DNA of 64,000 nt from a bacterium (GTDB taxonomy: Bacteria > Bacillota > Clostridia > Lachnospirales > Lachnospiraceae), in assembly GCA_030535455.1 (NCBI GenBank), contig JAUNJY010000002.1:146818-210817 (forward strand). The letters are read 5' to 3'. Positions 10,135 through 52,321 of the stretch are shown here, in pieces. The notes under the pieces were generated by a model. The model saw only the letters and a list, made by a program, of their open reading frames with translations. It was not told the DNA's origin and did not search any database. Every line of letters begins with the position of its first letter. The first letter of the stretch is position 1. The position numbers and the translations under genes are program-made.

Positions 10135-10282
10135 CGGATCACCTTCTTTATCTCAAAATAACATTTATTCCATATTATATGATTCTGTTTGACATATTAT
10201 TATTGCTAATCCATATTTCTATTCTTATGTACAATTAAACGTGTCTTTCAAGACGCTCGTCTTTCAGGAAACTAGTCTTTTG

Positions 10283-10310
10283 GTCCTGTACAATCTTCAC
10301 CGTACAGGAC
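10283..10310. repeat. Companion hairpin of palindromic element A
   Basis: GTCCTGTAC and GTACAGGAC form a 9-bp stem with a 10-base loop. Read from the serS side it is followed by CCAAAAGA. Elements B and C carry a different stem (GTCAGGTA/TACCTGAC) in the same place, followed by ACAAAAAGA. Confidence 0.7.
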
Positions 10311-10315
10311 ATAAC

Positions 10316-10531
10316 GGCTTGTGCATCACAGTATAAAGCAAGGCTTACCATTAAAATATCACAACCTACATAAAGAAAAAGGAGTTCCTAACAATCCTAA
10401 CTTGTACTTCCTCTGCAGCTGTAGAGGCAGCGGAAGTACAATAGGACTGTTACGGAAGCTCCTTTTTCTTTTTCGTAAATCTACAATATTTTAATGCTAA
10501 GCCTTTTCAGCACCCAAAAAGTGCGCCAGCC
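10316..10531 (-). repeat. Palindromic element A, downstream of serS
   Basis: A 216-bp long-range inverted repeat. Outer ends are GGCTGGCGC (reverse strand, 10531-10523) and a degenerate partner at 10316-10324. Inside are AAGGCTT/AAGCCTT, ATTAAAATAT/ATATTTTAAT, AAAGAAAAAGGAG/CTCCTTTTTCTTT and TTGTACTTCC/GGAAGTACAA. Conserved blocks shared with B and C include ATTGTTAGG (plus strand CCTAACAAT at 10387) and GTAGGTTG. It begins 6 bp after the serS stop codon. Part of it could also serve as the serS terminator. Confidence 0.8.
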
Positions 10532-10537
10532 CAACAA

Positions 10538-11821
10538 TTATTTTTTAGTAATGAACTCTTTTCCACCCATGTATGGACGTAAAGCTTCTGGAATTCTTAC
10601 AGAACCATCTGCTTGTAAGTTATTTTCAAGGAATGCGATTAACATTCTAGGTGGTGCAGCAACTGTGTTGTTTAATGTATGAGCGAAGTATTTTCCATCT
10701 TCACCAGCAACACGGATCTTAAGACGACGAGCTTGAGCGTCACCTAAGTTAGAACAGCTACCAACTTCGAAGTATTTCTTTTGTCTTGGAGACCAAGCTT
10801 CAACGTCAACAGATTTTACTTTAAGATCTGCAAGGTCACCAGAACAGCATTCAAGTGTTCTTACTGGGATATCTAAGCTACGGAATAAATCAACTGTGTT
10901 TCTCCATAATTTATCATACCATTCCATGCTTTCTTCTGGTTTACATACAACGATCATTTCTTGTTTTTCGAATTGGTGGATACGGTAAACACCACGTTCT
11001 TCAATACCGTGAGCACCTTTTTCTTTTCTGAAGCATGGAGAGTAAGATGTTAATGTATGAGGAAGAGTATCTTCTTTTACGATTGTATCGATGTATTTAC
11101 CGATCATGGAGTGTTCACTTGTACCGATTAAGTATAAGTCTTCTCCTTCGATTTTGTACATCATGGAATCCATTTCTGCAAAACTCATAACGCCTGTAAC
11201 AACGTCGGAACGGATCATGAAAGGTGGTACACAGTAAGTGAAGCCTCTGTCGATCATGAAATCTCTAGCATAAGAAATTACAGCAGAGTGAAGTCTTGCA
11301 ATGTCTCCCATTAAGTAGTAGAAACCATTACCTGCTACTTTACGAGCAGAGTCAAGGTCTAAGCCGTCAAAGCTTTCCATGATTTCTGCATGGTAAGGGA
11401 TATCGAAGTCAGGAACCACTGGTTCACCGAATTTTTCAACTTCAACATTTTCAGAATCATCTTTACCGATTGGTACAGATGGATCGATGATGTTAGGAAT
11501 GATCATCATTCTGTTTTTAACTTCTTCTTGTAATTCTCTTTCTTTTGCTTCTAATTCAGCAAGACGATCAGCTTGTGCATTTACTTTTGCTTTGATTTCT
11601 TCTGCTTCTTCTTTTTTACCTTGTCCCATTAATGCACCGATTTGTTTACTTAAGGATTTACGGTCAGCTCTTAATTGATCTGCTTCTCCTTTTACTTTAC
11701 GGCTTTCAGCATCTAATTCAATTACTTCGTCTACTAAAGGAAGTTTTTTATCTTGGAATTTGTTGCGGATATTTTGTTTTACGATTTCAGGATTTTCTCT
11801 GACAAATTTTAAATCTAACAT
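10538..11821 (-). CDS. serS: Seryl-tRNA synthetase
   Basis: From the ATG at 11821 the protein has 427 residues, the normal length. The first 110 residues are the tRNA-binding coiled-coil arm (QLRADRKSLSKQIGAL). The class II catalytic core follows, with motif 2 FRKEKGAHGIEERGVYRIHQF and motif 3 SGDLADLKVKSVDVEAWSPRQKKYFEVGSCS through NNTVAAPPRMLIAFLEN, abridged here. It charges tRNA-Ser with serine. The upstream in-frame ATG overlaps the GGAGG sequence and cannot be the start. Transcription is controlled by a T-box leader. Codons look optimised compared with neighbours, as expected of a highly expressed gene. Confidence 0.97.
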   Translation of the reverse strand: MLDLKFVRENPEIVKQNIRNKFQDKKLPLVDEVIELDAESRKVKGEADQLRADRKSLSKQIGALMGQGKKEEAEEIKAKVNAQADRLAELEAKERELQEEVKNRMMIIPNIIDPSVPIGKDDSENVEVEKFGEPVVPDFDIPYHAEIMESFDGLDLDSARKVAGNGFYYLMGDIARLHSAVISYARDFMIDRGFTYCVPPFMIRSDVVTGVMSFAEMDSMMYKIEGEDLYLIGTSEHSMIGKYIDTIVKEDTLPHTLTSYSPCFRKEKGAHGIEERGVYRIHQFEKQEMIVVCKPEESMEWYDKLWRNTVDLFRSLDIPVRTLECCSGDLADLKVKSVDVEAWSPRQKKYFEVGSCSNLGDAQARRLKIRVAGEDGKYFAHTLNNTVAAPPRMLIAFLENNLQADGSVRIPEALRPYMGGKEFITKK

Positions 11822-11940
11822 AGTTGTTTCCTCCAATTACAATACAATCTATTTATGAGTTCAAAAAAGCAATAATACTCCAAAATATCTTATGAATCTT
11901 GGCACACTTTATTTTTCCCAACAAGATACTTTGTTAGGAC

Positions 11941-12190
11941 AAAAAAAGTGGCAACGTGGAAATTCGTTTTTCCACGCACTAAAAACTAGTGCATGGGACG
12001 AATGTTTCCGCGTTGCCACCCAAATTGTCTGCTAAAAGCAAACCTCTTTAAAAGTACGTTAAAGGGTACTAACCTTCTGATTTATCACCAGCAGCTAAAA
12101 AAGTGGAACGATTTTAATAAGTACCGATTTACACCAACCATCGGCTCTCTGAGACTCTTTCAAATCATAGCTTTTCTCATTGCTTATTTC
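11941..12190 (-). promoter_or_regulatory. T-box riboswitch leader of serS
   Basis: On the reverse strand the conserved T-box GGGTGGCAACGCGGA (12020-12006 region) precedes a strong terminator. In that terminator GTGGCAACGCGGAAA pairs with TTTCCACGTTGCCAC, followed by seven T residues at 11947-11941. Upstream, stem I contains AGAGAG and a GGTTGGTG apical loop. A likely specifier codon is UCC (12107-12105) followed by A, fitting serine. Uncharged tRNA-Ser would favour the antiterminator and allow serS expression. The 5' limit is approximate. Confidence 0.9.
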
Positions 12191-27589: not shown

Positions 27590-27862
27590 GACTGTGATAA
27601 ATGAAATCTTGCATTCACTCCAGCGCACTGCTTAGAGGAAAGTTTGAAAACCATAGGTTTTCATTGGAATCGATATCCGGAAACCGCGCTTTTCGGATAT
27701 CGGATTAGTGCGAATAGGTCCTGTTTTAGAAGGACTTGCACGAGTGAGCACTAATCATTTCCCTCGGCACTGGATGAAATCCTGATTTCATCCAAAGCTT
27801 GTCGACTTTGTCGACAAGCTGAAAGTGAGTGCGCATCCTACGCCCTGTCTTCTAAGGGCGTT
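27590..27862. repeat. Cluster of adjacent hairpins downstream of element D
   Basis: The stretch folds into at least five neighbouring stem-loops: CGATATCCGGAAA.../CGGATATCG, GATTAGTGC/GCACTAATC, GGATGAAATC/GATTTCATCC, AGCTTGTCGAC/GTCGACAAGCT and CGCCC/GGGCG. No coding frame is credible. GC content is above that of the neighbouring intergenic DNA. The region has the same position relative to element D as the cluster at 37145-37450 has to element C. Confidence 0.6.
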
Positions 27863-27865
27863 TTT

Positions 27866-27984
27866 TGAATTAAGGGGTGGCTGCTCAAAGAGCAAACTCC
27901 CCTTAATTCAAAAAAGGTGTTCCCTAACAATCTTATTGTTATAGGAACACCTTTTATTATATTCATGGCAGGCTAGTTAGCCAC
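27866..27984 (-). repeat. Element D, short relative of the palindromic family, with terminator
   Basis: Read from the symporter stop, it has GTGGCTAACT near the outer end and a stem GGTGTTCC/GGAACACC whose inner part contains the family block ATTGTTAGG (plus CCTAACAAT at 27923). A second stem TTGAATTAAGGGG/CCCCTTAATTCAA follows, its loop containing CAGCCAC as in B and C. It begins 11 bp after the symporter stop codon and lacks the ATTAAAATAT arms. The AAGGTGTTCC hairpin followed by T residues is probably a working terminator. Confidence 0.6.
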
Positions 27985-29646: not shown

Positions 29647-29994
29647 ATGGATACTATATTAGATATGGATGTACTTCAGTTAAAACTTGAAGTGTCACGT
29701 AATAACTTCAAAAAATTGGTTCAAAAGATTTATGACAAGGAAATGCAAGAGGAATCGAAAGAAGCAGTCCTTTCCCTTCTTCTAAATGGAAAAGAAGAAT
29801 TCACTTCCCTTATGGAGGAAGCGCATTCCTTTCCAACTGTTACGGATGAATTAAAAGATGTGCAGTTTGCTATCTTTGATCATCTTTTACTTGCTAACGA
29901 TCTGTATACCTTCTATAAAGAAGATTTATTTGACCGTTTCCGATTACGTTTCGAAAACTATAATCAGCGTCAGCGTGTAAACAGCCTTTTGTAG
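29647..29994 (+). CDS. Small helical protein of unknown function
   Basis: 115 residues, no signal peptide, no cysteine, predicted all-helical and acidic, with no motif I recognise. The reading frame is supported by GAGGATA seven bases before the ATG, codon use like its neighbours and an AT-rich promoter-like region upstream. The stop codon is followed after one base by palindromic element B. A terminator beyond the element (30336-30374) suggests that gene and element share one transcript. Confidence 0.7.
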   Translation: MDTILDMDVLQLKLEVSRNNFKKLVQKIYDKEMQEESKEAVLSLLLNGKEEFTSLMEEAHSFPTVTDELKDVQFAIFDHLLLANDLYTFYKEDLFDRFRLRFENYNQRQRVNSLL

Positions 29995-29995
29995 G

Positions 29996-30284
29996 GGCTG
30001 GCGCTCGATATCCTTACTAAAAGATTTTTCATTAAAATATCGAAGTTTTACGAAAAAGAGATAGGCGTTACAGTAACAGTGCTATTGTCTTTCCGCTGCC
30101 TCTACAGTAATCTCCAAATATCCACTGCTGTCAGACACCTTTGGTGTTTGCCCTCAGTGGATATTTTGTCATTACTGTAACGGTAGAGGAAAGACAATTT
30201 AGCATTGTTAGGAACGCATATCTCTTTGTTGTAGGTTGAGATATTTTAATGAAAAATCTTACTTCAGTCTATGGTGCGCCAGCC
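29996..30284 (+). repeat. Palindromic element B, the largest copy
   Basis: A 289-bp near-complete inverted repeat. Outer ends are GGCTGGCGC (29996) and GCGCCAGCC (30276). A perfect 21-bp arm (30021-30041 with 30240-30260) contains CATTAAAATAT. Further stems are AAAGAGAT/ATCTCTTT, GTCTTTCC/GGAAAGAC and CTCTAC/GTAGAG, and an inner hairpin at about 30115-30168 with AAATATCCACTG/CAGTGGATATTT. It shares the blocks TTTACGAAAAAG, ATTGTTAGG and GTAGGTTG with A and C. It begins one base after a stop codon. Confidence 0.85.
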
Positions 30285-30289
30285 ACTAG

Positions 30290-30313
30290 GTCAGGTATGA
30301 GAAACTACCTGAC
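30290..30313 (+). repeat. Companion hairpin of element B
   Basis: GTCAGGTA and TACCTGAC form an 8-bp stem followed by AAAAAGATGAGTTTC. The same stem and following bases occur beside element C at 37470-37493 in the matching orientation. Confidence 0.75.
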
Positions 30314-30335
30314 AAAAAGATGAGTTTCATAAAAG

Positions 30336-30378
30336 AGGAGACACACTAACGTTTCTATCGTTAATGTGCCTCCTTTTT
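30336..30378. terminator. Bidirectional terminator between the small gene/element B and the purine permease
   Basis: GGAGACACACTAACG pairs with CGTTAATGTGCCTCC (a few mismatches), followed on the plus strand by six T residues. On the reverse strand it lies 45 bp after the permease stop codon. Confidence 0.75.
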
Positions 30379-30423
30379 TCTATATTATATATATTTAACT
30401 TTTTCGCTTTCGTTAAATGTTTA

Positions 30424-31725: not shown

Positions 31726-31853
31726 GACTTTCTCCCTTTAGTTCTTCACTATCATAAAGGTGGAATCAGAAATGTTTTGACTGCGCAAAAACGCTACATA
31801 GATATGGCAAAGCAAATTAGAAAAATTACTTTACTAACATATTAGCACTGCAC

Positions 31854-31917
31854 ATCGTAGTCAAATCATAGGTGATTTGGTAGAAACTATTGATCCATTA
31901 TATCAACTTTATACGAT
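31854..31917 (-). promoter_or_regulatory. Purine riboswitch, divergent aptamer
   Basis: Read on the reverse strand: P1 ATCGTA/TACGAT, P2 TTGAT/ATCAA with loop ATAATGG, the nearly invariant J2/3 AGTTTCTACC, P3 with loop ACCTATG, and J3/1 GAC before P1 closes. The GG of loop 2 and CC of loop 3 can form the family's kissing pair. C in J3/1 matches guanine-type aptamers. Unusual are J1/2 TAAAG (usual TAATC) and the L3 sequence. It precedes the purine permease gene. Confidence 0.8.
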
Positions 31918-32060
31918 AGCTTTGTTTGGTTATTTATATTAGGTCATATGGTATCACAGCTATATTTCACATTTCTACATGTAAATTATGGATATGAGTA
32001 TTTCCGACTAATTTAACCATACTAAGCATTGTATATTATTGATAAAGGAGTCTGAATATT

Positions 32061-37145: not shown

Positions 37146-37450
37146 GCACCGAGGACGGTGCCTTCCGATGAAATCAGGCTTTCATCGGGTGCTGGAAGTA
37201 ATGAAAGAGGTAGTAATGCATTCTGCATTACTACCTCTTTCCGTTTTTGCGGGAGTAAATCCCGCGAAAACGATTCTAATCGGACACGATGTTTCCGATG
37301 CCCTTCCCCTAGTAAGACGTTGTAAGCGATAGTAGTCCACCCTGGGTCGTCTTAAAGATCGGGTTGCACCCGGACCTGCTAACTGGCTGTCTACGGAACG
37401 CAGTGCGCCAGACAAAGGATGAACCTTTTCTGGCATCTAAGTCCTTTTGT
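37145..37450. repeat. Dense hairpin cluster between the AIM24 gene and element C
   Basis: At least five adjoining stem-loops: GGCACCG/CGGTGCC (37145-37162), CCGATGAAA/TTTCATCGG (37165-37188), a perfect 18-bp stem at 37203-37241 with a 3-base loop, CGTTTTTGCGGGA/TCCCGCGAAAACG (37242-37272) and ATCGGA/TCCGAT (37279-37299). A GC-richer part (37300-37430) contains CGGGT/ACCCG and GTGCGCCAG, also seen at the ends of elements A and B. No protein is supported. The first hairpin may terminate the AIM24 transcript. Confidence 0.7.
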
Positions 37451-37469
37451 CCTTGTGAAGCTCTTTTTT

Positions 37470-37493
37470 GTCAGGTAATCCTTCCTACCTGAC
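37470..37493 (-). repeat. Companion hairpin of element C
   Basis: GTCAGGTA/TACCTGAC stem with an 8-base loop, followed on the reverse strand by AAAAAAGAGCTTCAC. Stem sequence and following A-run match the hairpin beside element B. Confidence 0.75.
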
Positions 37494-37498
37494 ACAGT

Positions 37499-37663
37499 GG
37501 CTGTCGCCTACTTAACCTACATAAGGTCTTTCATTAAAATATGACAACCTCAATCAAAGAAACTAGGTGGCCTAACAATACTAACTTGTGCCACCTAGTT
37601 CCTTTATCGAAAACCTATAATATTTTAATGAAAAACCTTTTCATACACTAAATAGCCACAGCC
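37499..37663 (-). repeat. Palindromic element C, downstream of the DUF3784 gene
   Basis: A 165-bp inverted repeat. Arms AAGGT-x-TTTCATTAAAATAT at 37523-37542 and its complement at 37620-37639 enclose the stem AACTAGGTGG/CCACCTAGTT, whose loop holds the family block CCTAACAAT (37571-37579). The outer ends GGCTGTCGCC (37499) and GCCACAGCC (37655) correspond to GGCTGGCGC of element B. It begins 7 bp after the stop codon of the reverse-strand DUF3784 gene and runs in the same direction. Confidence 0.8.
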
Positions 37664-37670
37664 TATCTCC

Positions 37671-38009
37671 CTATTTTTTACATTTTGTATTGGAGTAATA
37701 CATTTCAACTGCAATATCAATTACGATTAACACTGTAAATACCATTGCAATGGGCCCCATTGTATCTTCCTTAATGGTTCCTGCTTCCACAAATCCAGTC
37801 AGGACTGTCAAAATAATCATCAGCAAAGTTACAATTCCCATACATACACCCATAGATTTACAAAGTTTGACCTTATCATACTTCTCTTGTTCTTCCTTGG
37901 ATGACGTATTATATCCGGCAATCAGCATACTTCCCTTTCCCTGCAATAGCACGATTGTAATTACTAGTAAAATCAAATCCATTACTAGTAATAAAATAAT
38001 TCCTCCCAT
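37671..38009 (-). CDS. DUF3784-type small membrane protein
   Basis: 112 residues with three membrane helices (about 5-23, 53-73, 85-103). The segment GKGSMLIAGYNTSSKEEQEKYD after helix 1 (shown in part) is the DUF3784 hallmark. Function unknown. It closes the operon that starts with the ferredoxin-like gene, 15 bp after the ABC-permease-like gene. Confidence 0.82.
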   Translation of the reverse strand: MGGIILLLVMDLILLVITIVLLQGKGSMLIAGYNTSSKEEQEKYDKVKLCKSMGVCMGIVTLLMIILTVLTGFVEAGTIKEDTMGPIAMVFTVLIVIDIAVEMYYSNTKCKK

Positions 38010-51509: not shown

Positions 51510-51760
51510 CTTTTGGGGCATATGCAAAACTTATCAGTTATTTTATCCCAATTTGCGGACTTTTTTGACTGAATCGTGTCTTTTTGGCTATATATAAATT
51601 TTCTTTTTCTATATGCCCGAAGTTCGACTAATTCTGTGAACATTTTCAATGCTCAATTTTGTATCTGCCCAATTGAACGCAGTTTCTTCTATTTCAAGGC
51701 ATACTTTTGGCATATATGAAATTTTCTTCTGTATATGCCAAATCGGTCACACTTTCCTCG
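51510..51760. repeat. Degenerate GGCATATA hairpin repeats
   Basis: A motif of TTTTGG followed by a GGCATATA/TATATGCC-type hairpin occurs three times, at about 51510, 51581 and 51705. The last is nearly perfect (GGCATATAT...ATATGCC), the second has one mismatch, the first is only the short GGCATATGC form. The last two share AAATTTTCTT in the loop. No gene is supported in this 384-bp gap. Confidence 0.5.
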
Positions 51761-51770
51761 AAAGGAATAA

Positions 51771-51820
51771 GAGCTGTCACACCAACGATTGCATATCGCT
51801 TGTGTGACAGCTCTTTTTTA
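51771..51820. terminator. Bidirectional terminator before the Nudix gene end
   Basis: GAGCTGTCACAC and GTGTGACAGCTC form a 12-bp perfect stem followed by TTTTTTA on the plus strand. On the reverse strand it follows the Nudix stop codon within 5 bp. Confidence 0.85.
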
Positions 51821-52321
51821 TACTTCCATTTGTAATAACGTTTTCATTATCATGGTCTCACGCTTAAGCCATGGGATATGTTCCTCATCATCCACAGATT
51901 CATTCAGACGAATCAGCTCTTCTAAGGAAAGCCAGTCTATCTGATAGCCATACTCTTCTTCGTACTGATCCAGGTTACGTTCTCCTGGTTCTTTTTCGAT
52001 CTCACAGAAATAATAATAGGATTCCATATCCATTAAATCCTCTGGACTTCCCTTGCGCTTCTCATGCACTAAGAAGGCTTCTTCTATGCTATTTCGCACA
52101 ACATGGTATCCTGTCTCTTCCTGCATCTCCCTAGCCAGAGTATCCGTAAGGCTCTCACCGGCTTTTCTGCCGCCTCCAGGGAATTTATAATCCCCATACT
52201 TACTATGGATGATTAAATACTTTCCTTTATTTTGTACAATTCCTCGGACAGCGGTTCGTTTGAATACGGTTCCGCCCTCCTTATAATTTTTCAAATCAAT
52301 GGTTAATTCTTGAAATGCCAT
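51818..52321 (-). CDS. Nudix hydrolase
   Basis: 167 residues from the ATG at 52321, fixed by AAGGAGG six bases upstream. The Nudix box is complete (GGGRKAGESLTDTLAREMQE followed by ETG, with the catalytic Glu pair in REMQEE). It hydrolyses some nucleoside diphosphate derivative; the substrate cannot be predicted. It lies 50 bp after the gene for a one-helix membrane protein. Confidence 0.88.
   Translation of the reverse strand: MAFQELTIDLKNYKEGGTVFKRTAVRGIVQNKGKYLIIHSKYGDYKFPGGGRKAGESLTDTLAREMQEETGYHVVRNSIEEAFLVHEKRKGSPEDLMDMESYYYFCEIEKEPGERNLDQYEEEYGYQIDWLSLEELIRLNESVDDEEHIPWLKRETMIMKTLLQMEV

What the first reader, a model, noticed from the sequence alone, without database searches (positions are those of the whole stretch)
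29996..30330. Palindromic element B: most complete copy, probably transcribed as a 3' UTR
Element B is almost entirely self-complementary over 289 bp with a perfect 21-bp arm and intact outer ends GGCTGGCGC/GCGCCAGCC. The upstream small gene stops one base before it, and a clear terminator lies only after it (30336-30378), so the element should be part of the mRNA. That speaks for an RNA role such as mRNA protection or a processed small RNA.
Basis: partly seen in the sequence, partly recalled or inferred. Interest (0 to 1): 0.8.

Follow-up and report, generated by a model that had tools for sequence, protein, structure and literature searches.

The report
Mobile giant hairpins behind stop codons
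The 289-base palindrome is one copy of a family of hairpin repeats, not found described in the papers searched, that sit directly behind the stop codons of ordinary genes in a few related bacteria and that probably spread as a mobile element and are now decaying.

Summary
In detail: window 29996-30284 is a near-complete palindrome (RNA MFE -147.7, z -18.8), one base behind a stop codon. It is one of 24 places in the window's genome G000 and about 33, remnants included, in the same-genus MAG G001. Counted, 38 of 48 listed copies start within 13 nt of a sense stop codon; random intergenic points give 5.6%. A second hairpin and tail follow (30290-30335). Stems differ between copies yet stay complementary (52 of 96 pairs changed on both sides), while short asymmetric motifs are kept; one recurs in another genus. 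Of 37 loci at matching gene ends in two further same-genus genomes, 36 show none.

Best reading: a non-autonomous MITE/BOX/ERIC-like mobile hairpin, presumably co-transcribed as an mRNA 3' end; some deleted copies survive as ordinary terminators. Present copies look near-neutral: orthologues evolve like fourfold sites (0.83 vs 0.81) and compensating changes are scarce in the least diverged pairs. RNA-level selection is weakly indicated (G·T 42 vs A·C 21). No transposase partner or target duplication was established; transcription is inferred.

The parts
29647..29994 (+). upstream gene, 115 aa, no Pfam match at E<=0.001; stop TAG one base before the element
   Evidence: 90% identical orthologue in a MAG
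29996..30284 (+). palindromic element B, long form
29996..30004 (+). motif A, 5' side of the outer stem (partner 30276-30284); GGCTGGCGC in some copies, GGCTGTCGC with matching partner in others
30021..30041 (+). perfect 21-bp arm with conserved CATTAAAAT (motif B); partner 30240-30260
30053..30069 (+). middle stem, 5' side (partner 30213-30227); the G001 orthologue keeps this stem as a plain terminator
30090..30108 (+). motif C, 5' side (CTCTACAGT); 3' side 30174-30193
   Evidence: a form of it recurs in G385
30109..30127 (+). spacer stem between motifs C and D, partly variable yet complementary; partner 30156-30173
   Evidence: helix 8
30128..30155 (+). motif D, apical hairpin CTGTCAGACACC/GGTGTTTGCC
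30290..30313 (+). second small hairpin, recurrent, sequence differs between copies
30314..30335 (+). tail of the AAAAGAC-AGTTTCC-TAAAAG type
30336..30379 (+). terminator-like hairpin with T-run, outside the element
   Evidence: (scan lists the minus strand only)
10261..10533 (-). second window copy, behind a serS-like gene (10538-11836); apex shortened
37450..37665 (-). third window copy, behind a 112-aa ORF (37671-38009); apex deleted
27910..27955 (-). plain terminator behind the Na:alanine symporter gene; at this gene end G001 carries a short element with the same kind of core

Best explanation
Element B is one copy of a non-autonomous mobile hairpin family (MITE/BOX/ERIC-like) that settled directly behind stop codons in the direction of the gene and is now inherited vertically and decaying. 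Shown by computation: many copies, mostly sense and stop-proximal placement, absence at nearly all matching gene ends examined in G002 and G003, kept asymmetric motifs joined by exchangeable complementary stems, and shortened copies that end as plain terminators. Inferred: most copies were gained in the common ancestor of G000 and G001 (some places have it in only one of the two); the copy is transcribed as the mRNA 3' end and its rod hinders 3' exonucleases or is cut by a double-strand RNase; in many copies the A-rich/T-rich middle stem can serve as the gene's intrinsic terminator, which would explain its survival. In the window copy that U-run is weak, so read-through to the terminator at 30336 is more likely. 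Also inferred: pairing was needed while the element was active, since covariation is plain between copies and weak between close orthologues.
For: 24 distinct places in G000. Counted, 38 of 48 copies lie directly behind a sense stop; four more read so by eye; control 1113 of 20000 random intergenic points of the window. Of 37 loci at G002/G003 gene ends, 36 have no R1 match at E<=0.1; the one match is guaB of G003. pheS-pheT distance 466 nt with the element, 18, 25 and 59 nt without. 52 of 96 pairs changed on both sides, shuffles 26.8, slid structures 14-20. Orthologues: element 1281/1550, fourfold sites 257/318; three least diverged pairs 0 double changes, 12 to G-T, 9 to A-C, 24 other. Plain terminators left: G001 behind the 115-aa gene and G000 behind the symporter, both with the middle-stem core; G000 thioredoxin with the apical stem (L221).
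Against: No autonomous parent: only one transposase family (PF05598) was sought, and G000 and G001 have none. No target-site duplication could be read, because the nearest empty sites are too diverged. A mobile repeat would be expected in both directions and also upstream of genes; near-exclusive sense placement needs a terminator-like target or selection. Motif C is kept across genera, which fits a functional RNA too. Three other orthologous pairs do show 43 double changes, partly in blocks at the apex.
Confidence: 0.6

Rival explanations
1. A cis-acting structured RNA kept by selection behind stop codons: the conserved internal-loop motifs bind a protein, and the rod protects, processes or insulates the message.
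For: Sense placement behind stops; motif C in a second genus with other stems; covariation between copies and 43 double changes in three orthologous pairs; G-T exceeds A-C in 37 of 51 copies, is lower in 9, equal in 5.
Against: Orthologues evolve like fourfold sites; parts are often deleted; 36 of 37 loci at G002/G003 gene ends lack it; the G-T excess is modest in majority-Watson-Crick columns and absent in G385 (10 vs 10) and G003 (2 vs 6). No Rfam family at gathering score.
Confidence: 0.2
2. A DNA-level hairpin element that acts as single-stranded DNA for a hairpin-recognising transposase (REP/RAYT or IS200/IS605 style), its arms kept alike by template switching rather than by selection on RNA.
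For: Stems are mostly Watson-Crick: 1372 of 1516 cells, G-T 60, A-C 21, other 63; spacer stems differ completely between copies at nearly constant length (by eye); no G-T excess in G385.
Against: Strong link to the direction of the upstream gene. Such a transposase was not sought.
Confidence: 0.13
3. Only oversized intrinsic terminators that arose independently at each gene.
For: Middle stem with A-rich and T-rich sides; two shortened copies are plain terminators with that core.
Against: Copies share motifs A-D, and most share the second hairpin and tail, so they are homologous; the window copy has a separate terminator behind it.
Confidence: 0.05

Closest known systems
BOX, RUP and SPRITE repeats of Streptococcus pneumoniae (PMC3049150, passages read)
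   Same: Dispersed; BOX is modular; predicted stem-loops if transcribed; over-represented between convergent genes; thought to have spread in the past.
   Different: Those repeats also lie upstream of genes (BOX: 70 upstream of at least one CDS, 16 between convergent CDSs, their Table 1); here placement is mostly sense and directly behind a stop. Sequences were not compared by a call.
ERIC of enterobacteria and NEMIS/Correia of Neisseria (PMC2229807, passages read)
   Same: Non-autonomous repeats co-transcribed with genes; RNA hairpins discussed as RNase E or RNase III targets; orientation matters for ERIC.
   Different: Units of about 100-200 bp against about 340 bp here; TIR and TSD listed for them, no TSD established here.
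REP/BIME/REPIN (PMC3116915 and PMC12306157, search listings only)
   Same: Palindromic and extragenic.
   Different: Unit size and RAYT partner are recalled, not tested here.
Ribosome termination structure, RTS (PMC7518266, abstract read)
   Same: Stable mRNA structure immediately downstream of the stop codon.
   Different: A folding feature of 18-65% of genes in 128 genomes, not a homologous repeat family.
A/T-flanked terminator-like stem-loops of low-GC Firmicutes (PMC1590033, passages read)
   Same: Close to stop codons, with an A-rich side complementary to the U-run, as in the middle stem here.
   Different: Described as a class of terminator-like stem-loops, not as one repeat family with shared motifs.

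Membership tests
MITE | many dispersed copies without coding capacity for transposition | tested here: met
   24 places in G000; no ORF of 50 aa or more overlaps 29996-30284
MITE | terminal inverted repeats | tested here: met
   GGCTGGCGC/GCGCCAGCC, as part of an overall palindrome; a second hairpin and tail lie outside it
MITE | target-site duplication | tested here: inconclusive
   nearest empty sites (G002, G003) too diverged to place the ends
MITE | ends shared with an autonomous transposon in the genome | tested here: inconclusive
   one family tried: PF05598 not found in G000 or G001; the 3 loci in G003/G385 contain no exact GGCTGTCGC, GGCTGGCGC or CAGTAAC
BOX (pneumococcal) | boxA-boxB-boxC module sequences | not tested
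   no call compared them; only the modular layout is alike
REP/REPIN | RAYT gene partner | not tested
   no search made
intrinsic terminator | G+C stem followed directly by a U-run | tested here: inconclusive
   middle stem has it in several copies, weakly in the window copy (UCUCUUUGUU); the scan lists none inside the element, but it allows loops of 3-8 only
Rfam RNA family | match at gathering score | tested here: not met
   none over the element at gathering score; only matches far below their gathering scores in the permissive scan
ribosome termination structure | stable mRNA structure directly behind the stop | tested here: met
   as a prediction; that it is in the mRNA is inferred
ribosome termination structure | effect on translation re-initiation | not testable with these tools
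   needs a reporter operon

The most novel reading that the evidence does not exclude
A bacterial counterpart of SINEs: an element that spreads through its own transcript, the rod RNA with motif C being the form recognised for copying and for insertion at mRNA 3' ends, which would explain the mostly sense placement behind stop codons.
Probability: 0.08. Interest if true: 0.9.

Novelty: new variant of a known kind. Interest (0 to 1): 0.5.

Why it matters
It would add a repeat family whose position and direction relative to the stop codon are almost fixed, and in which short asymmetric motifs are kept while the helices between them are freely exchanged. That makes two questions testable: how a repeat comes to lie at gene 3' ends in one direction, and whether terminators can be born from decaying mobile hairpins, since plain terminators with the element's core are found at orthologous genes.

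Tried and rejected
Native-terminator origin of the middle stem: by eye I compared middle stems with terminators of G002/G003 orthologues; apart from a short similarity at the 115-aa gene of G002 I saw none, so I dropped the idea that the element wraps the old terminator.

IS1182-type origin of motif A: GGNGCTGTCGCACTAA occurs in 8 of 21 genomes, but the six loci read in context are plain terminator-like hairpins; PF05598 was not found in G000 or G001. The name IS1182 is recalled.

A supposed general terminator core (TAACAAT..TTGTTA) gave only 5+5, 7+7, 0 and 3+1 matches (forward+reverse) in G000, G001, G002, G003, so it is no general terminator signature.

The raw excess of G-T over A-C pairs (191 vs 50 in 26 copies) looked decisive for RNA selection; it shrank to 42 vs 21 after leaving out columns whose commonest pair is not Watson-Crick, so I no longer treat it as decisive.

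Sought without result: three exact patterns in viral contigs, the window element in plasmids and phages by blastn. Paper searches listed no description of this family in the titles and abstract beginnings shown; passages of PMC2267715 did not either. Organism not named: G001 is taken to be the MAG 'bacterium isolate S3R_St_47', because JAUNRX010000026.1 has the length of G001 contig C173 and the same element sequence. G000 is unnamed. The weak fourth window hit 51688-51842 (E 0.0004) reads as an ordinary terminator.

Limits: R1 was built from 16 copies and its structure from the same alignment, so pair counts lean towards it. Searches over more than 40 genomes use strict filters and score few candidates (8 per genome). 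Some G002/G003 'orthologues' (L186, L206) are only 47-54% identical over the tail and may be paralogues; L185 and L233 each serve two genes. C99a/g1C170 may not be a true orthologous pair. The pair classes use pairs from minimum-energy folds of either copy, which favours G-T; its class 'other' was not split.

Full report
What is there. The stretch 29996-30284 is a palindrome with intact ends and a perfect 21-bp arm; as RNA it folds into one rod at -147.7 kcal/mol, 0 of 200 shuffles as good. It begins one base behind the TAG of a 115-aa ORF without Pfam match. A second hairpin (30290-30313) and a tail (30314-30335) follow and recur in most copies whose right side is held. A terminator-like stem lies at 30336-30379.

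Family size. A DNA search gave 24 matches in G000, mirror and partial hits included. A covariance model R1 of 346 positions built from 16 long copies and a model R2 of the apical part give 24 distinct places in G000: 21 and three more. In G001 R1 finds 27 distinct places, and reading of orthologous gene ends adds six, several of them remnants (R1 matches). R1 finds two places in G003, a single-contig genome of the same genus, none in G002, and none in the other 37 genomes. R2 hit only G000 among 40 family genomes (G001-G003 were not in that sample) and only G000 and G385 among 392 genomes of the order, under strict filters. An exact pattern for motif C matched 7 of 392 genomes; the loci tested of G000 and G385 are strongly self-complementary (scores 282 and 186), those of the other five genomes are not (34-60), and the reversed-pattern control also rings in many genomes.

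Where copies sit. Direction was set by similarity to the window copy, not by genes. In 38 of 48 listed copies the stop codon of an open frame of 67 or more codons ends between 13 nt before and 8 nt inside the hit start (my count: G000 15 of 18, G001 22 of 28, G003 1 of 2). Four more (C67, g1C204b, g1C67b, g1C55b) were missed by the script but read as directly behind a stop. The other six: C99a and g1C170 behind a non-coding hairpin, C47 and its apparent orthologue g1C171b, where C47 lies antisense between two genes, g1C206g with masked upstream sequence, and one copy in G003. Random intergenic points of the window with random strand satisfy the same rule in 1113 of 20000 cases. Two further G000 places, C57 and C99:87358, also follow stops; C73 lies behind a terminator downstream of an rpsP-like gene. 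Gene names such as serS, pheS, thioredoxin and rpsP are my reading of the translations; only the symporter and the permease were scanned with Pfam.

Structure. RNAalifold on 15 long copies predicts 96 pairs, 49 with changes on both sides. On 16 copies 94.5% of cells pair (shuffled 82.1), 52 pairs change on both sides (shuffled 26.8), no shuffle of 500 reaches the observed value on any of five measures, and slid structures give 14-20 such pairs. Four short motifs are kept: A (GGCTGTCGC/GCGACAGCC), B (CATTAAAAT/ATTTTAATG), C (CTACCTCTACAGT/ACAGTAACGGTAG, with unpaired or mismatched bases) and D (CTGTCAGACACC/GGTGTTTGCC). The stems between them vary. In G385, a different genus, four hairpins (self-complementary spans of 261-376 nt by a loose alignment) carry motif C with other helices and, by eye, an 8-10 nt stem that differs completely between the four copies, is complementary and keeps nearly constant length; in three the hit starts 37-52 nt behind a stop codon in sense, one lies between divergent genes.

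Gain and decay. Of 37 loci at matching gene ends in G002 and G003, 36 have no R1 match at E<=0.1; the match is guaB of G003 (L134). guaB of G001 (L231) also carries a C-D hairpin, guaB of G000 and G002 do not. pheS and pheT are 466 nt apart with the element in G000, and 18, 25 and 59 nt apart at the three places read in G002 and G003. Between G000 and G001 many places are shared, often one long and one shortened: window copy 2, C113, C99b, C110a. At a few places only one of the two shows it (for example window copy 3). Two shortened copies are plain terminators with the middle-stem core and one keeps the apical stem as a terminator (L221). Six orthologous pairs give element identity 1281/1550, fourfold sites (five genes) 257/318, downstream flank 569/859. 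In the three least diverged pairs I count 0 double Watson-Crick changes, 12 to G-T, 9 to A-C and 24 other; in the other three pairs 43 double changes, partly in blocks at the apex. So compensation is plain between copies and weak between close orthologues, which fits constraint during spread and relaxed drift afterwards. That last step is inference.

RNA or DNA. A strand-symmetric arm alignment gave G-T 191 and A-C 50 in 26 copies. In a set of 51 copies 37 have more G-T, 9 fewer, 5 equal; G003 2 vs 6, G385 10 vs 10. In columns with a Watson-Crick majority it is 42 vs 21 cells and 26 vs 18 columns. I read this as weak support for the sense strand being the folded form.

Known relatives. No Rfam family at gathering score over the element; the permissive scan gives only matches far below their gathering scores. 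No match in viral contigs by three exact patterns, nor in plasmids or phages by blastn. Paper searches listed no description of this family; the library lacks most subscription papers. The nearest kinds are BOX/RUP/SPRITE (PMC3049150, passages), ERIC and NEMIS (PMC2229807, passages) and the RTS (PMC7518266, abstract).

Verdict. A real repeat family, not found described, with unusual placement; most likely a decaying non-autonomous mobile hairpin carried at gene 3' ends.

Noticed in passing
window 27600-27850, minus strand: A second, more abundant dispersed structured repeat of about 220 nt (hairpin CCGAAAAGCGCGGTTTCCGG; MFE -92.3, z -6.5): 45 matches in G000, 46 in G001, 37 in G003 (mostly near 70% identity there), none in G002 or G385; no Rfam match near its gathering score. 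By eye the stems of the G003 copy in L215 covary.
   Followed up: partly
L243, L244, L245, L246, L247, L248: Terminator-like hairpin GGGGCTGTCGCACTAA..TTAGTGCGACAGCCCC in 8 of 21 genomes of two families, reversed control 0; resembles motif A. Several matches lie about 60 nt from contig ends, hinting at repeats there.
   Followed up: partly
window 11991-12189 and 31838-31936, minus strand: T-box leader upstream of the serS-like gene and purine riboswitch upstream of the permease gene.
   Followed up: no
L085 2190-2260 (minus) and L072: A non-coding hairpin directly before one pair of elements, without Rfam match at gathering score.
   Followed up: no
L131 1480-1770, L231, L235: A subfamily with other outer arms (CTTCCTCCCCACG type) that shares motif C.
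   Followed up: partly
L179 (G002, behind the orthologue of the 115-aa gene): By eye, a different insertion of about 100 nt, partly palindromic, inside the terminator loop.
   Followed up: no
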